Made by a program: the position numbers and the translations under genes
Assembly (NCBI GenBank): GCA_027922465.2
Contig: BQMF02000055.1
Span: forward strand, 1,054,001-1,118,000
Reading direction: 5' to 3'
Source: Turritopsis dohrnii
Taxonomy: Eukaryota > Cnidaria > Hydrozoa > Anthoathecata > Oceaniidae
DNA length: 64,000 bases
In this document: positions 52,676 through 63,485 of the stretch, one piece after another
How the letters are laid out: each line of letters opens with the position of its first letter
Numbering within the stretch: the stretch's first letter is position 1
Notes under the pieces: model-generated
Databases searched by the model: none
Told to the model about the DNA's origin: nothing
What the model saw: only the letters and a program-made list of their open reading frames with translations

Positions 52676-52677
52676 TA

Positions 52678-52803
52678 CCTTAGTTCCCTTAATTTTCGCG
52701 CCCCTTTAATTTTCGCGCACTTGACCCGCGCGAAAATTAAAGGTGCGCGAAAAGCACCTATTTTCGCGCACTTGACCGCGCGAAAATTAAAAGGTGCGCG
52801 AAA
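52678..52803 (+). repeat. Left terminal inverted repeat and subterminal repeats
   Basis: The 41-bp perfect terminal repeat (52678-52718) is followed by two larger palindromic units built from TTTTCGCGCACTTGACC and CGCGCGAAAATTAAAGGTGC. These repeated CGCG-cored motifs, about 20-40 bp apart, are plausible transposase binding sites. Confidence 0.88.
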
Positions 52804-52958
52804 TAGCAAAATTCTTCATTTTTCTCAATTTTCGAGCTTTTATATAGAAATATACCTTATTATACACTTATATAACTAATATAATTAATCAAGTATTTAA
52901 GGCGGGTAAACAGAGTGCGGCAATGAGACTCAGGAATGAAAAATGGAAGTGAAAATGC

Positions 52959-52964
52959 TTTATT
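52959..52964 (-). terminator. Poly(A) signal for the HIRAN gene
   Basis: Minus-strand AATAAA about 100 bp after the HIRAN stop codon and inside the transposon, so the cargo gene appears to be a self-contained transcription unit. Confidence 0.5.
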
Positions 52965-53065
52965 AATCTGAAAAAAATGAATCGAGCTTTTTTGGTTAAG
53001 ACATCGTTGGTGGTGATTCTTGTTTCTTCATTAATACATGAACACTTAAAAAATACTACAGTATT

Positions 53066-53734
53066 TCAGTCATCAATAACTATAACTTCAGAAATAGTTT
53101 GAGTTTCTGGTACTGCTTGTGTGTTACCGATACCCTGAGTTTCAGGAATGACTTGAGTTTGTGTTTCAGGTATCACCTCTATCGAATCATTACCGTCATG
53201 CTCATGGTTCTCAGCAGTAGGTTGACTTTCTTCAATTTCTGAGTCTGGGACAAATTCTACATCTAGATCAATCTCTTCATCGTAGTTTTTATTATTGGTC
53301 GAAACAACAATCCGGTCTGGTTCTATGTAGTAACTTTTGATAAATGTTTCCATTTCGGAAAAAACTTTCTCGGTCGCATCTTCTTTCTTAACACTTAGAA
53401 GAATAGGAATTTCCAAACCTCCTGATGGAATAGGAGATGGCCTATATTTGGCACAAGTAACATGTGCTTCTAATTTTCCACCATAATTGATAAAAAAGTA
53501 ACAAAAGCGACTGATTTCGCGAGGAATATGGCCAACTATTTCATTACTTGTAAGCTTTCCATTTAACTTGGCTCCCAATGAAATCGCAAAAGGATCGTGA
53601 ATATTATTGATTTCTTGGTTGACTTGAAGCTTTTGTCCTGTCTTTGGATTCCAGATTTCTCGATAAACATGAAATCCTCGGCTAGCACATGCAATTTCAA
53701 ACTTTTGTTTTCCACTTCCTGACATACCTGCCAT
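53066..53734 (-). CDS. HIRAN-domain protein encoded inside the transposon
   Basis: 222 residues. About 16-115 fit a HIRAN domain: RGFHVYREIWNPKTGQ, QEINNIHDPFAISLG, EIVGHIPREISRFCYFF and GGKLEAHVTC. In HLTF-type proteins this fold grips 3' ends of single-stranded DNA at remodelled forks. The second half is acidic and low complexity, with three (I/V)PETQ units, and ends SEVIVIDD, a textbook-like SUMO-interaction motif (hydrophobic core plus acidic residues). No helicase or RING domain is attached, unlike HLTF/Rad5. The first ATG is used; a second in-frame ATG follows three codons later. It is divergent from the transposase and ends near the left terminal repeat. A role in transposition (end protection, fork targeting) is inferred; a captured host gene is the alternative origin. 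Confidence 0.8.
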   Translation of the reverse strand: MAGMSGSGKQKFEIACASRGFHVYREIWNPKTGQKLQVNQEINNIHDPFAISLGAKLNGKLTSNEIVGHIPREISRFCYFFINYGGKLEAHVTCAKYRPSPIPSGGLEIPILLSVKKEDATEKVFSEMETFIKSYYIEPDRIVVSTNNKNYDEEIDLDVEFVPDSEIEESQPTAENHEHDGNDSIEVIPETQTQVIPETQGIGNTQAVPETQTISEVIVIDD

Positions 53735-54113
53735 ATCAAATCAGATGAATGGGATGTTACGATTTATGAATGCCAGAATTCGAATGTTTATACAATTATG
53801 GTCGAATTTCGGGATTCGAATGGCGAGTCTTTAGGCCCTGTTCAGACGTTAAATATTTTTTCTGAGAACTTTTCAAACAAGAAGTTTGTCCCTTATCCCA
53901 AATTTTTCTTTACCAGCAGAAATCTCATTTTGATGAAAAAAAATTGGAGACAAAGGAAATCCTTAACTCCATTTTAAATCTTACAACATCTGAACGAAAC
54001 CTTAAGGAATAAGAGAATCCATTGCATTGTAAATTCGAACGCCTTCAACTTTTTAGAGTGGCTTACTTTTTCAAAAGTTTTCGGAAGTGCGGAAGTGTGA
54101 GCGGTGAGCTTCT
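53735..54113. promoter_or_regulatory. Shared divergent upstream region of HIRAN and transposase genes
   Basis: 379 bp between the two start codons. No reading frame crosses it. I see no clear TATA box; the region must carry both promoters if the genes are expressed from within the element. Confidence 0.45.
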
Positions 54114-55724
54114 ATGATGTCTTTGCACAAGTTCTTTAGCAAGTCCAACACCACTATCAAAGTGGCAGCGGCAGCAGGGAATCTTAATTCGACGGAAGAA
54201 GAAGAAGTGGTAAATGCGTTAGAAAATATTTCCAATCCTTCTCCTCAAGGACAAAATACCGCAGCAAAAAAGAGAAATGCAAAAGGGTAAGCAAAATTTT
54301 ATTTTTCTCAGCGATTTTTTATAAGAATTAAAAACTTCTCAATAACTCTTAAGTCTAAATTACATAGTTCAATAAAGTAATGCCATCTTGACATTTTAAA
54401 TGTTTTTTAATAATGAGGGCCTTTTCTACTTTCTTCTAGGCTTACCTACAAGAAGCATATTCCTGAATTCCGATGTACCGTAGCCAAATATGCAATCGCT
54501 AATGGCAACCGCCCAGCTGCTAAAAAGTACGAAGTGTCAGAATCTACCGTCAGAGGATTTGTGAAATCGTTTAAACAAACACAACAAGAAAATCCTAACA
54601 CCGACTTGGAGGTCGTACCATTACGAAAACGAGGACGCTCAACCCTCCTTCCAGAAGAGCTCGATCATAAGGTAATGGCAATGATCAAAGAGATGAGAGA
54701 ATCTGGAGCTGTGATCAACTACAGTATAATGATGGCTGTGGCAACTGGACTCATTATGGCCAATGACAGAACATTACTTAAAGAATACGGTGGAACAATT
54801 CAATTAGGAATCAAGTGGTGTGAATCTATTTCGCGACGGCTTAAATTCGTCAAAAGAAAAGCAACCACAGCTAAGCCTTTGATAGCACCTGGCCTTATCA
54901 AGGAGATTGGGCTTACATTTTACAAAGAAATCAACGAAATCGTTAATGCCCATCAAATTCCAGCTGATATGATTATCAATATTGATCAGACTCCGCTTCC
55001 ATTTGTGCTCATCAGCAAGTACACACTGGAAAAAAAGGGTAGCTCCCGCGTTTCTGTACCAGGGACTTCCGACTACCGCCAGATTACTGGAACATTCGCC
55101 ATATCTCTGTCTGGCAATTTCTTGCCTATCCAGCTTATCTACCAGGGAAAAACTCAAAGAAGCCAGCCCAAATTTGAGTTTCCCAGCGAATTCCATGTCA
55201 CTCAAACCCCGAATCATTGGGCTGACGAAAAAACCAGCATTGAGATGGTGAAGAAGATTTTAATTCCTTACATAAAAGAGAAGCGAAAAGAATTGAACGC
55301 TCCGCAGAAACCATGGCTGTTGCTTTGCGACGTCTTCAAAGGACAATGGACCGAAGCGGTTAAGAGCGTTGTCAAAGAATCAAATGGTAAAATGGTTCCT
55401 GTGCCAAACAACTGGACTAACTACTTCCAGCCATTAGATCTTACCGTCAACAAGAGCAGCAAAGATTTCTTACGGAAAGAGGCTCAAAACTGGTACTCAC
55501 AGGAGATCATGAAGCAGATGCAAGCAGGAAAACGTTCCGACCAAATAAAAGTCGATGTTCGAATTTCTGTGGTTAAACCACTACACGCTAAGTGGATAGT
55601 CAAATACTACGATTATGCAAGGAGTAAACCGGAAATTATCATCAACGGGTGGAAAGAGTCCGGAATTACTGAACATCTTCAAAAGAAGATAGATTTGGAC
55701 CCTTTTTCTTCTAAAGTTATTTAA
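54114..55724 (+). CDS. Pogo-like DDD transposase, two exons
   Basis: Exon 1 is 54114-54286 (donor GG|GTAAGC); exon 2 is 54440-55724 (acceptor TTCTTCTAG). Joined, they give 485 residues. Residues 1-10 (MMSLHKFFSK) resemble a PIP box (M-x-x-L-x-x-F-F). A basic stretch AAKKRNAK follows near 50. Residues ~60-105 form a helix-turn-helix (KYAIANGNRPAAKKYEVSES) of the psq/CENP-B type. Catalytic residues are D240 (INIDQTP), D355 (LLLCDVFKGQ) and D391 (FQPLDLTVNKS). The last two are 35 residues apart, giving a DD35D triad in place of the DDE of Tc1. TA duplications fit the IS630-Tc1-mariner-pogo group. The frame is intact. The short 153-bp intron fits host splicing. Confidence 0.88.
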
Positions 55725-55868
55725 CGAATGCCTTACTATTGTAACCATAGTATGTTGTAACTTATATCTGTTGATAAAAGGAAGAGCCGACTAAAAGTAA
55801 ATACCAAAGTGTGTGGTTTATCCATGTCTTTGTGTTTTGGCCAAATAACCTGTTTTGAAAAATTTATG

Positions 55869-55993
55869 AATTTGAGGGTGCGCGAAAATTATTGGGTGCG
55901 CGAAACTGAGTTTTTAAGGGGTGCGCGAAAATTAAAGGCGCGAAAATTAAAGGCGCGAAAATTAAAGGGGCGCGAAAATTAAGGGAACTAAGG
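55869..55993 (-). repeat. Right terminal inverted repeat and subterminal repeats
   Basis: The outer 41 bp (55953-55993) are the exact inverse of the left end. Inward are four to five further GCGCGAAAATTA-type units in direct orientation at ~15-30 bp spacing. Their arrangement differs from the palindromic layout at the left end. Confidence 0.88.
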
Positions 55994-55995
55994 TA

Positions 55996-58575: not shown

Positions 58576-59039
58576 CCGTATTTCCTCTGAATAACGCCGC
58601 CCTCTGATAAACGCCGCCCTCTATTAAACGCCGCACTTATAGCCGAACGTTTGTAGTAAACGCCGCCCTCTAATAAACGCCGCCCTCTAATAAACGCCGC
58701 CCTCTATTAAACGCCGCATCTTGAAAAGCGGTGTTTATTAGAAAACAGGTTAAACAAGAATTATAAAAAAAAGCTTTCATCTCATACAAAGAGAACGGCG
58801 ACAGTGATATTGCTCTTCTTTGATATTTTCGTGAACATATCTTTTGTGTAAAACATTTTCACACAATCTTTTGTAACCTTTTTAAGGATAAGGAAACATT
58901 ATTGTTTAAGTTTGCTTCTGTCCAATTTTTCATTTTGTAATAAACGCCGCCCTCTAATGAACGCCTCCCTCTATTAAACGCCGCATCCAAAAACTTGAGT
59001 TTGTAATAAACGCCGCGGCGTTTAATGGAGGAAATACGG
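58576..59039. mobile_element. Non-autonomous TA-flanked element with CGCCGCC subterminal repeats
   Basis: Ends CCGTATTTCCTC and GAGGAAATACGG are inverted copies flanked by TA (58574-58575, 59040-59041). Inside each end, units of TAAACGCCGCCCTCTAT repeat (about six on the left, three to four on the right). The architecture parallels the CGCG-repeat ends of the autonomous element at 52678, which suggests the same superfamily, but the sequence is unrelated. No transposase is present. Confidence 0.8.
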
Positions 59040-61612: not shown

Positions 61613-61710
61613 AAATTGATAATCTTTAATATTAAGAAAACTGTAAAGTACATGTGTGAGATTAAGATTCGTCTGCAAAATATCGAAATCTCTCAGGAGA
61701 TATTTATGAA

Positions 61711-62172
61711 AGACAAATCAAAAAACAACATAAATTGTCGGTTACACTTGTAATATCTTAATCTTTCTGAAGTTTAATTATTCGCAAAAAAAAGAGTGTG
61801 GAACTGGGGACACGGATCGCGTTGAATAGAGGCGCGAAACAAAAGGATTAACAATAGGTGTCAATCAAATTCAAACGAGTTGTTCATCTTAAAGAGGCAT
61901 TGGCCGGCTTAAAATGTAAATATTATTCTCACGTGATCAAAAGACAAATCAAAAAACAACATAAATTGTCGGTTACACTTGTAATATCTTAATCTTTCTG
62001 AAGTTTAATTATTCGCAAAAAAAAGAGTGTGGAACTGGGGACACGGATCGCGTTGAATAGAGGCGCGAAACAAAAGGATTAACAATAGGTGTCAATCAAA
62101 TTCAAACGAGTTGTTCATCTTAAAGAGGCATTGGCCGGCTTAAAATGTAAATATTATTCTCACGTGATCAAA
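61711..62172. repeat. Perfect tandem duplication, 2 x 231 bp
   Basis: AGACAAATCAAAAAACAACA at 61711 recurs at 61942, and the two units appear identical throughout. Each includes the left end of the TTAA element described next. It is a recent duplication or an assembly duplication. Confidence 0.92.
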
Positions 62173-63485
62173 ACATTCAAAATCAAAACAAATATGGCAT
62201 AAACTTCGGAATCGCTTTAAACATCGTTTATTGAACTGCGAAGTGAGAAAATATAAAAATAAAACATGGCTTTAAATAATAGAAATATACCTGACACATG
62301 TATCTTGTGACATATGATTCAATGTGAAGACAGAAATAATATTTTACACAAGGTTTACACTTCCATTTTTGATCTGTTCCTTCCTATAAGAATGCAGCAG
62401 TGTGGGGACGGGAAGAAGAAGATAACTAGAGATAATTGAATCAGTGTTCTTCTTTCTTCATGATGCACACAATGAAACCAACCATGACCATATTGGAAAT
62501 CATATAGTTGAGTCGAAAAGAAAATGAAGTCATCATAAGGATATGATCATTCTTTCGTATCCAGTAAGAAATCAAATGCCCAAAAAGTCAAAAAAAAAAT
62601 CAAATACTATTTCAAACGTTTAATAGAAAAACACAAGTTTTTTTCAATGATTATCCAGATGTAATGTATAATAAACAAGAAAAATTGATCAGTCACAGAA
62701 GCGACTCCAGGCAGAAATTATGAATATGTCATTCTGACAAAATCAAGATTTGTGTTCTTATTAAAATTTTGGAAACAGTTAAAAAGTAAGTTAATGAAAA
62801 TTAAAAAGAGAAAAACAAATTTAAAAACAAATTGTTTCCATAAACAGTGATAAATGTTTGAACTTATTTCCTTTTCTCCCTTGACAATGCCTGGCCTTAT
62901 ACAAGGCCCATGTTGAAATGGCTCCTTCTTTTACAAAATCAAAAAAGGTTTTTCTAGCTACGGCGTACAAATATAGACACAAAAGTTGTAGAGCGTGCAC
63001 TTGAAGTCAGTAATGAAAAAATCTTATTCCATAAGAAATGTTTTTCTGTGATTGTCAGAAAGAAAGTGGATTTTCTTTTACATTTTAAATAATAAAAATA
63101 ACAGACATCACAAAAATAAAAATAAAAATTGCAACAAAAAGTCAAATTTTTGCTTCGAAAAATCCATTACATGAATGTCGTGATACATCCACATATATCC
63201 AGATGTATCCACGTATATCTTTATAATGACAGATATTCCCATTGATATGTTAGTACATTGTTGTTCGGAGGAGAGGTCAGATGAATAATTTGTCTCTAAG
63301 CAATCAACAACTTTAAAACAAGACTTTGAAAAAATAATTCTATCACCAATGAAAATTTTCGATCTTCTTGCTCGAAGTTTATTTTCTCCTCGATAAGTCT
63401 GTTTTTTGATAAGTAAATCCGCATAAGTATTTGAATAATCGAGAGTAACTCAAACTCTATTGTTTTTAAGCCGGCCAATGCCTCT
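62124..63485. mobile_element. Non-autonomous TTAA-flanked (piggyBac-like) element
   Basis: Inverted ends AGAGGCATTGGCCGGCTTAA plus AA (22 bp) are at 62124 and 63485. TTAA lies immediately outside both (62120-62123 and 63486-63489), the target duplication of piggyBac-type elements. The 1.36-kb interior has no transposase frame. A second copy of the left end sits 231 bp upstream because of the tandem duplication. Confidence 0.75.

What the first reader, a model, noticed from the sequence alone, without database searches (positions are those of the whole stretch)
52678..55993. A pogo-like transposon carrying its own HIRAN-domain gene
Seen: 41-bp perfect inverted ends, TA duplications, an intact two-exon DDD transposase and an intact divergent HIRAN gene, all inside one 3.3-kb unit. 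Known: HIRAN domains of HLTF bind 3' single-strand ends at forks; pogo elements normally encode only transposase. Inference: the HIRAN protein is an accessory factor that targets or protects transposon ends or exploits replication/repair. I do not know of a described family with this gene pair, but cannot search.
Basis: partly seen in the sequence, partly recalled or inferred. Interest (0 to 1): 0.88.

Follow-up and report, generated by a model that had tools for sequence, protein, structure and literature searches.

The report
Transposon carrying a HIRAN-domain gene
This is a recently active cut-and-paste transposon that, besides its transposase, carries a second gene for a HIRAN-type (DNA-binding) protein; the same two-gene layout recurs in many distantly related transposons of the same genome, so the second gene looks like a working part of the element and not an accident.

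The parts
52678..55993 (.). whole element, 3316 bp, pogo-type DNA transposon with an accessory HIRAN gene
   Evidence: inverted ends and flanks; near-identical copies elsewhere
52676..52677 (.). TA target-site duplication, left
   Evidence: sequence; TA-TA in 7 of 8 complete copies fetched
55994..55995 (.). TA target-site duplication, right
52678..52718 (+). left terminal inverted repeat, starts CCTTA
   Evidence: the same CCTTA start after TA in C452, C296, C164 and one end of C178
55953..55993 (-). right terminal inverted repeat
52694..52803 (.). left cluster of seven TTTCGCGC motifs (candidate transposase sites; also fits the recalled E2F consensus)
   Evidence: 16 in the window against 0.65 expected; 13 lie in the element, all in its two ends
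55880..55977 (.). right cluster of six TTTCGCGC motifs
53066..53734 (-). HIRAN accessory gene, 222 aa, no intron
   Evidence: open in 20 of 20 full-length copies listed; model and fold search
53324..53710 (-). HIRAN domain (about residues 9-137); N44, D47, G68, H69 conserved
   Evidence: conservation; equivalence to HLTF N91, D94, G109, H110 through
53069..53086 (-). C-terminal VIVIDD, SUMO-interaction-motif-like
   Evidence: motif definition recalled
53735..54113 (.). 379-bp spacer between the two divergent start codons, candidate shared promoter
54114..54286 (+). transposase exon 1
54114..54137 (+). MMSLHKFF, PIP-box-like N-terminus of the transposase (no Q)
   Evidence: published PIP form from PMC5371812
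54287..54439 (+). GT-AG intron
54440..55724 (+). transposase exon 2 with DDE_1 domain
54984..54986 (+). catalytic D240
55329..55331 (+). catalytic D355
55437..55439 (+). catalytic D391

Best explanation
SHOWN: a lineage of DD35D, TA-inserting pogo-type transposons has as a standing part a second, divergently placed gene for a small HIRAN protein, and the two genes have diverged together. INFERRED: the HIRAN protein is an adaptor that brings the transpososome to replication forks. Its HIRAN pocket would hold single-stranded ends or forks (3'-end preference of HLTF HIRAN is recalled), its C-terminal SIM would read SUMO, most simply SUMO-PCNA, and the PIP-like N-terminus of the transposase (in a distant clade a PIP-like motif in the HIRAN protein itself) would bind PCNA. 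Moving from replicated into replicating DNA would raise copy number. Clustered TTTCGCGC motifs at the ends could also couple expression to S phase. By function, not ancestry, this would be a eukaryotic counterpart of Tn7 TnsE.
For: Conserved pair: 63 of 78 diverged transposase hits have a HIRAN hit within 3 kb, each with a divergent partner. Five further families read with both genes. Distances correlate, r 0.79, p 1e-4, 12 pairs. dN/dS about 0.15. Specific: 13 of 150 best DDE_1 hits have a divergent HIRAN hit within 3 kb. Fold. Pocket: HLTF NN90,91AA HIRAN bound none of the DNA substrates tried, wild type bound ssDNA and forks (PMC4666394 passages); N44, D47, G68, H69 kept in 44-45 of 48 homologs. 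PIP-like N-terminus 32 of 68 against 22 of 597 internal-Met controls. SIM-like C-terminus 40 of 70 and 20 of 45 against 7.1% and 3.1% in shuffles. DIRxFF-like plus terminal SIM in 10 of 17 of the C164-type clade. pogo transposase is a known PCNA interactor, and TnsE binds recessed 3' ends and the beta clamp (PMC5371812 passages). TTTCGCGC 16 against 0.65 expected, 13 in the element ends.
Against: No binding or transposition was measured. The published PIP form Qxx[ILM]xxF[FY] occurs in 0 of 68 transposase homologs, and the strict xxFF form at the N-terminus in 2 of 68 against 10 of 940 windows: most read YF without Q. The tail of the window HIRAN lacks a PIP-like motif (loose pattern in 6 of 70 homologs). 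30 of 70 homologs lack the SIM form. HLTF N90 is matched by N in only 7 of 48 homologs (G in 30), and the position of Y93 is H or F in 42 of 48; the N pair is not kept in C598, C296 and C405. Pfam finds no HIRAN in L072 and P0024; profile A1 found no PDB sequence. TTTCGCGC is absent from C296 and C598. Among young copies pN/pS is 0.89 for HIRAN and 0.77 for exon 2, near neutral. 12 of 78 diverged transposase hits have no listed HIRAN within 5 kb.
Confidence: 0.45

Rival explanations
1. The HIRAN protein is an end-handling factor: it binds free ends made by excision (transposon ends or donor break), protects them or steers repair so the donor copy is restored, without a role in target choice.
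For: HIRAN fold and partly conserved pocket; a transposase makes free ends directly; acidic TQ-rich tail (PETQ repeats) resembles a damage-kinase target (recalled).
Against: Explains the PIP-like and SIM-like motifs less directly, though repair also uses PCNA and SUMO.
Confidence: 0.24
2. The HIRAN protein is an anti-host factor: it mimics the HIRAN domain of host HLTF/Rad5 or reads SUMO in silencing complexes, blocking fork remodelling or SUMO-dependent silencing.
For: Conserved core with a fast-diverging tail and SIM-like end; very many HIRAN hits of many families in one genome.
Against: Tight divergent pairing and co-divergence with its transposase suggest work with that transposase; no host target tested.
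Confidence: 0.16
3. The HIRAN protein is a DNA-binding or transcriptional regulator of the element (binding end repeats or the shared spacer).
For: Divergent layout kept across families; a PDB entry shows HLTF HIRAN with duplex DNA (6kcs title).
Against: HLTF HIRAN showed no affinity for dsDNA in gel shifts (PMC4666394 passage).
Confidence: 0.09
4. Captured passenger gene without a role in the element.
For: Near-neutral pN/pS among young copies; two young copies with open transposase and truncated HIRAN (C68, C231).
Against: Pair kept in 63 of 78 diverged hits, dN/dS about 0.15, correlated distances, HIRAN open in 20 of 20 full-length copies.
Confidence: 0.03

Closest known systems
pogo superfamily (Passer/Fot-like DD35D elements; PMC7386202 and PMC7325037, passages and one section)
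   Same: TA duplication, DDD with 35 spacing, DDE_1, 3.3 kb within the published 1.2-5.2 kb, end length in the published types; PCNA link reported for pogo, PIP box for Tigger and Lemi1 (PMC5371812)
   Different: second, divergent HIRAN gene; the passage read gives one or two ORFs encoding transposases, and the word HIRAN occurs 0 times in either paper
HIRAN domain of HLTF/Rad5 (Pfam PF08797)
   Different: small stand-alone protein on a transposon, no SNF2 or RING; acidic TQ tail and SIM-like end; 14% identity; Y93 position is H
Tn7 TnsE
   Same: proposed job: bind DNA ends and the sliding clamp to aim transposition at replication
   Different: bacterial, different transposon; no homology tested or claimed
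Srs2 C-terminal tail (recalled)
   Same: PIP-like motif followed by a terminal SIM, as in the C164-type HIRAN clade
   Different: helicase, not a transposon protein; likeness in motif order only

Membership tests
pogo superfamily of DNA transposons | TA target-site duplication and terminal inverted repeats | tested here: met
   7 of 8 complete copies fetched with TA-TA
pogo superfamily of DNA transposons | DDE_1 catalytic domain with DDD triad and a spacing published for pogo (DD35D) | tested here: met
   Pfam above cut-off; D2-D3 spacing 35 in the window and 5 other families; DD35D published for pogo groups 33-40 and for almost all Passer and Fot
pogo superfamily of DNA transposons | Tc1/mariner-type RNase H fold | tested here: met
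pogo superfamily of DNA transposons | N-terminal HTH (psq/CENP-B/Tc5 type) | tested here: inconclusive
   only sub-threshold HTH_28, HTH_23, HTH_psq and HTH_Tnp_Tc5 matches in the window protein and relatives; PF03221 precomputed for P0228; helices present in the model
pogo superfamily of DNA transposons | placement in a transposase phylogeny with named pogo families | not tested
   no reference set of named pogo families was at hand
pogo superfamily of DNA transposons | canonical PIP box Qxx[ILM]xxF[FY] (reported for pogo, Tigger, Lemi1; not a defining feature of the superfamily) | tested here: not met
   0 of 68 transposase homologs; only Q-less look-alikes at the N-terminus
HIRAN (PF08797) | Pfam gathering score | tested here: not met
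   window protein 14.2 bits against 24.7; reached by the related L071 protein (27.4) and P0049 (24.7)
HIRAN (PF08797) | HIRAN beta-barrel fold | tested here: met
   model; profile of a related clade hits HLTF chains at E 1.3e-4
HIRAN (PF08797) | pocket residues HLTF N90/N91, D94, H110 | tested here: met
   window has N43, N44, D47, H69; N44 44/48, D47 45/48, H69 44/48, but N43 only 7/48 in homologs; equivalence
HIRAN (PF08797) | stacking tyrosines HLTF Y72 and Y93 | tested here: inconclusive
   Y93 position is H46 in the window (H 35, F 7 of 48); Y72 position not assigned
HIRAN (PF08797) | binding of ssDNA ends / forks | not testable with these tools
   needs purified protein
Tn7 TnsE-like target selector | homology to TnsE | not tested
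   claimed only as a functional parallel
Tn7 TnsE-like target selector | 3'-end plus sliding-clamp binding that directs insertion | not testable with these tools
   only motif evidence

The most novel reading that the evidence does not exclude
A whole lineage of eukaryotic pogo-type transposons carries its own replication-fork targeting module: a HIRAN protein that reads free DNA ends and SUMO(-PCNA), working with a PCNA-binding transposase, so that transposition is aimed at replicating DNA, an independently evolved counterpart of Tn7 TnsE.
Probability: 0.35. Interest if true: 0.92.

Novelty: new variant of a known kind. Interest (0 to 1): 0.8.

Why it matters
pogo transposase is reported to touch PCNA, but the functional relevance of its PIP box is called unclear (PMC5371812, passage). 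A transposon lineage that also encodes a HIRAN protein with a SUMO-interaction-like tail gives a direct way to ask whether eukaryotic cut-and-paste elements aim at forks. It would also show a repair-type DNA reader taken up as a transposon part and kept over deep divergence, and would supply many stand-alone HIRAN proteins to study. Some HIRAN genes counted in eukaryotic genomes may in fact be transposon genes.

Tried and rejected
One-off host capture: rejected by conservation. Chance ORF: rejected by homologs (238 at E<=0.01; 1510 at E<=0.001 with profile A2). Occurrence in viral contigs: three scans (HIRAN protein, A1, A4) found no relative. Profile A1 against PDB sequences found nothing; A3 from a related clade did. 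Per-copy selection among young copies is uninformative. TIRs of the C405 element were not found and those of C598 are uncertain. Host species was not determined.

Literature: ten searches. 'HIRAN domain' + 'DNA transposon' gave 0 papers, HIRAN + cnidarian 0, HIRAN + transposable element 2, of which passages showed one author's name and one phage context. HIRAN + transposon gave 14; I saw titles and abstract starts, and passages of one. One search (word starts) gave 377 papers; the 25 listed looked like author names or chance, judged from titles only. Papers seen in passages: PMC5371812, PMC4666394, PMC4103810, PMC7386202 (with outline), PMC7325037 (passages and its pogo section). Repbase and Dfam could not be searched.

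Limits of the counts: protein searches list 120 rows each. Motif counts concern 68 of 120 transposase rows (at least 430 aa), 70 of 120 HIRAN rows (at least 180 aa), and 45 of the 59 new rows. Two PIP-like patterns were tried: the first gave 28 of 68 against 51 of 940 windows, the second, anchored one 32 of 68 against 22 of 597; the strict FF form gave 2 of 68 and the canonical Q form 0 of 68. The pattern for the SIM was slightly wider; the stricter one gives the same 15 of 17 and 10 of 17.

Recalled, from no call: SIM consensus, E2F consensus TTTSSCGC, N-terminal PIP boxes without Q, Srs2 tail, TQ as damage-kinase site, 3'-end preference of HLTF HIRAN, Helitron and PIF1 likeness.

Full report

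Is it part of the transposon? The transposase search returned 105 scored hits of 1,684 candidates; 78 are below 90% identity. Twenty-five of these have a HIRAN hit within 3 kb, four more one, and 34 more appear with HIRAN queries from other families (tally): 63 of 78. Each of the 63 has a divergent HIRAN; for C113 the hit is on the same strand, but a divergent one lies 661 bp away. Three more lie 3.7-4.8 kb away; 12 have none listed. All lists are capped, so these are lower bounds. The other way round, 26 of 125 diverged HIRAN hits had a listed transposase; the rest were not examined. Control: of the 150 best DDE_1 hits, 13 have a divergent HIRAN hit within 3 kb; two others have one on the same strand, of which C137 is a DDE_1 element nested in a copy of this element. 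So most well-scoring DDE_1 elements here show no HIRAN partner. Five more families were read: C178, C598, C296, C164 and C405, with HIRAN 53, 43, 39, 34 and 42% identical to the window protein. Each has an open HIRAN frame and a transposase frame open over all or most of its length; C405 has it in two open pieces. C452 is a decayed closer relative. Ends starting CCTTA after TA recur in C452, C296, C164 and one end of C178. HIRAN and transposase distances correlate over 12 pairs (Mantel r 0.79, p 1e-4). For the six own-genome pairs alone r is 0.60, reached by 21 of 720 permutations. Against C452, HIRAN has pS 0.563 and pN 0.143 over 103 codons (dN/dS about 0.15); transposase pS is saturated, with pN 0.141. 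Among young copies there is no sign of constraint (pN/pS 0.89 for HIRAN and 0.77 for exon 2, 20 full copies each), as expected for copies after insertion. C68 and C231 have both exons open but a truncated HIRAN.

Hints at mechanism. (a) Transposase N-termini such as MSLHKYF, MSLYRYF, MSILNYF, MDITKYF and the window's MMSLHKFF look like PIP boxes: 32 of 68 long homologs against 22 of 597 internal-Met controls; an earlier pattern gave 28 of 68 against 51 of 940. But the published form Qxx[ILM]xxF[FY] is in 0 of 68 and xxFF in 2 of 68, so PCNA binding is a guess. Candidate upstream exons in C178 (MSLFKYF) and C452 (MSPIKNYF) agree with the pattern; their splicing was not checked. pogo transposase was the first transposon protein seen to bind a sliding clamp, and its PIP box is kept in Tigger and Lemi1, role unclear (PMC5371812, passage). 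(b) HIRAN C-termini: VIVIDD, IIIIDE, TIVID, SVVILD and the like sit at the very end: 40 of 70 and 20 of 45, against 7.1% and 3.1% in shuffled tails and 12 of 786 and 4 of 439 internal windows. Thirty of 70 lack it, in part apparently truncated predictions and in part proteins ending in acidic FDF/FDL-like tails. (c) In the C164-type clade 12 of 17 HIRAN proteins carry DIRxFF-like motifs in the tail (0.05% in shuffles), 15 of 17 a terminal SIM, 10 of 17 both. (d) Several HIRAN relatives carry an N-terminal CxxC cluster, only sub-threshold zf-HIT. (e) TTTCGCGC occurs 13 times in the element, only in its two ends; it fits the recalled E2F consensus but may simply be the transposase site, and it is absent in C296 and C598.

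Reading. The anatomy (ssDNA/fork-type pocket, SUMO-reader-like end, PIP-like transposase) fits a device that finds replication forks. Tn7 TnsE does this job in bacteria by binding recessed 3' ends and the beta clamp (PMC5371812, passage). I give this reading 0.35-0.45; end protection, host interference and regulation are rivals. Steps shown: element, gene pair, fold, conservation, motif enrichment. Steps inferred: DNA binding, PCNA/SUMO binding, fork targeting, S-phase expression.

Known or new? The two pogo surveys, seen in passages and one section, do not contain the word HIRAN, and one gives the structure as one or two ORFs encoding transposases (PMC7386202). Full-text search found no paper joining 'HIRAN domain' and 'DNA transposon'. 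Repbase and Dfam were not searchable, so a family may be listed there without comment. I rate it a new variant of a known kind: pogo chemistry with a new standing accessory gene.

Noticed in passing
G000 C172:833400-835058, C172:852893-854551, C50:716859-718517: Three copies share one internal deletion (element positions 442-2096), an amplified non-autonomous derivative; C72 and C66 are shorter deletion forms.
   Followed up: no
L036:1153-3164 (+); P0064: A HIRAN ORF followed on the same strand by an ORF that reads like a Helitron N-terminal region, and a 373-aa database protein with HIRAN running into a PIF1-helicase-like stretch: possible HIRAN capture by, or nesting with, Helitrons (likeness recalled).
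   Followed up: no
L038:1243-1938 (+), L035:1171-1935 (+), P0049: HIRAN relatives with an N-terminal CxxC...C zinc-type region (zf-HIT sub-threshold in L038 and P0049), absent in the window protein.
   Followed up: partly
window 53069-53200 (-); P0002-P0024: PETQ/TQ repeats in the acidic tail of window-type HIRAN proteins, possible damage-kinase target sites (recalled).
   Followed up: no
window 55698-55706 and transposase homologs: A [DN]P[FYL] motif near the transposase C-terminus in 38 of 68 homologs against 10 of 545 control windows; meaning unknown.
   Followed up: partly
G000 C137:716226-716693: A multi-copy DDE_1 family with a 423-aa frame has a copy nested inside the C137 copy of this element.
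   Followed up: no
window 61709-62173: Perfect tandem duplication of a 231-bp unit, with two of the three TTTCGCGC motifs outside the element.
   Followed up: no
window 58584-58984: Arrays of a 17-bp unit resembling CCTCTAATAAACGCCGC.
   Followed up: no
G000 C242:310552-356470: The three strongest Pfam HIRAN matches lie on one contig within 46 kb, possibly host HLTF-type genes or fragments.
   Followed up: no
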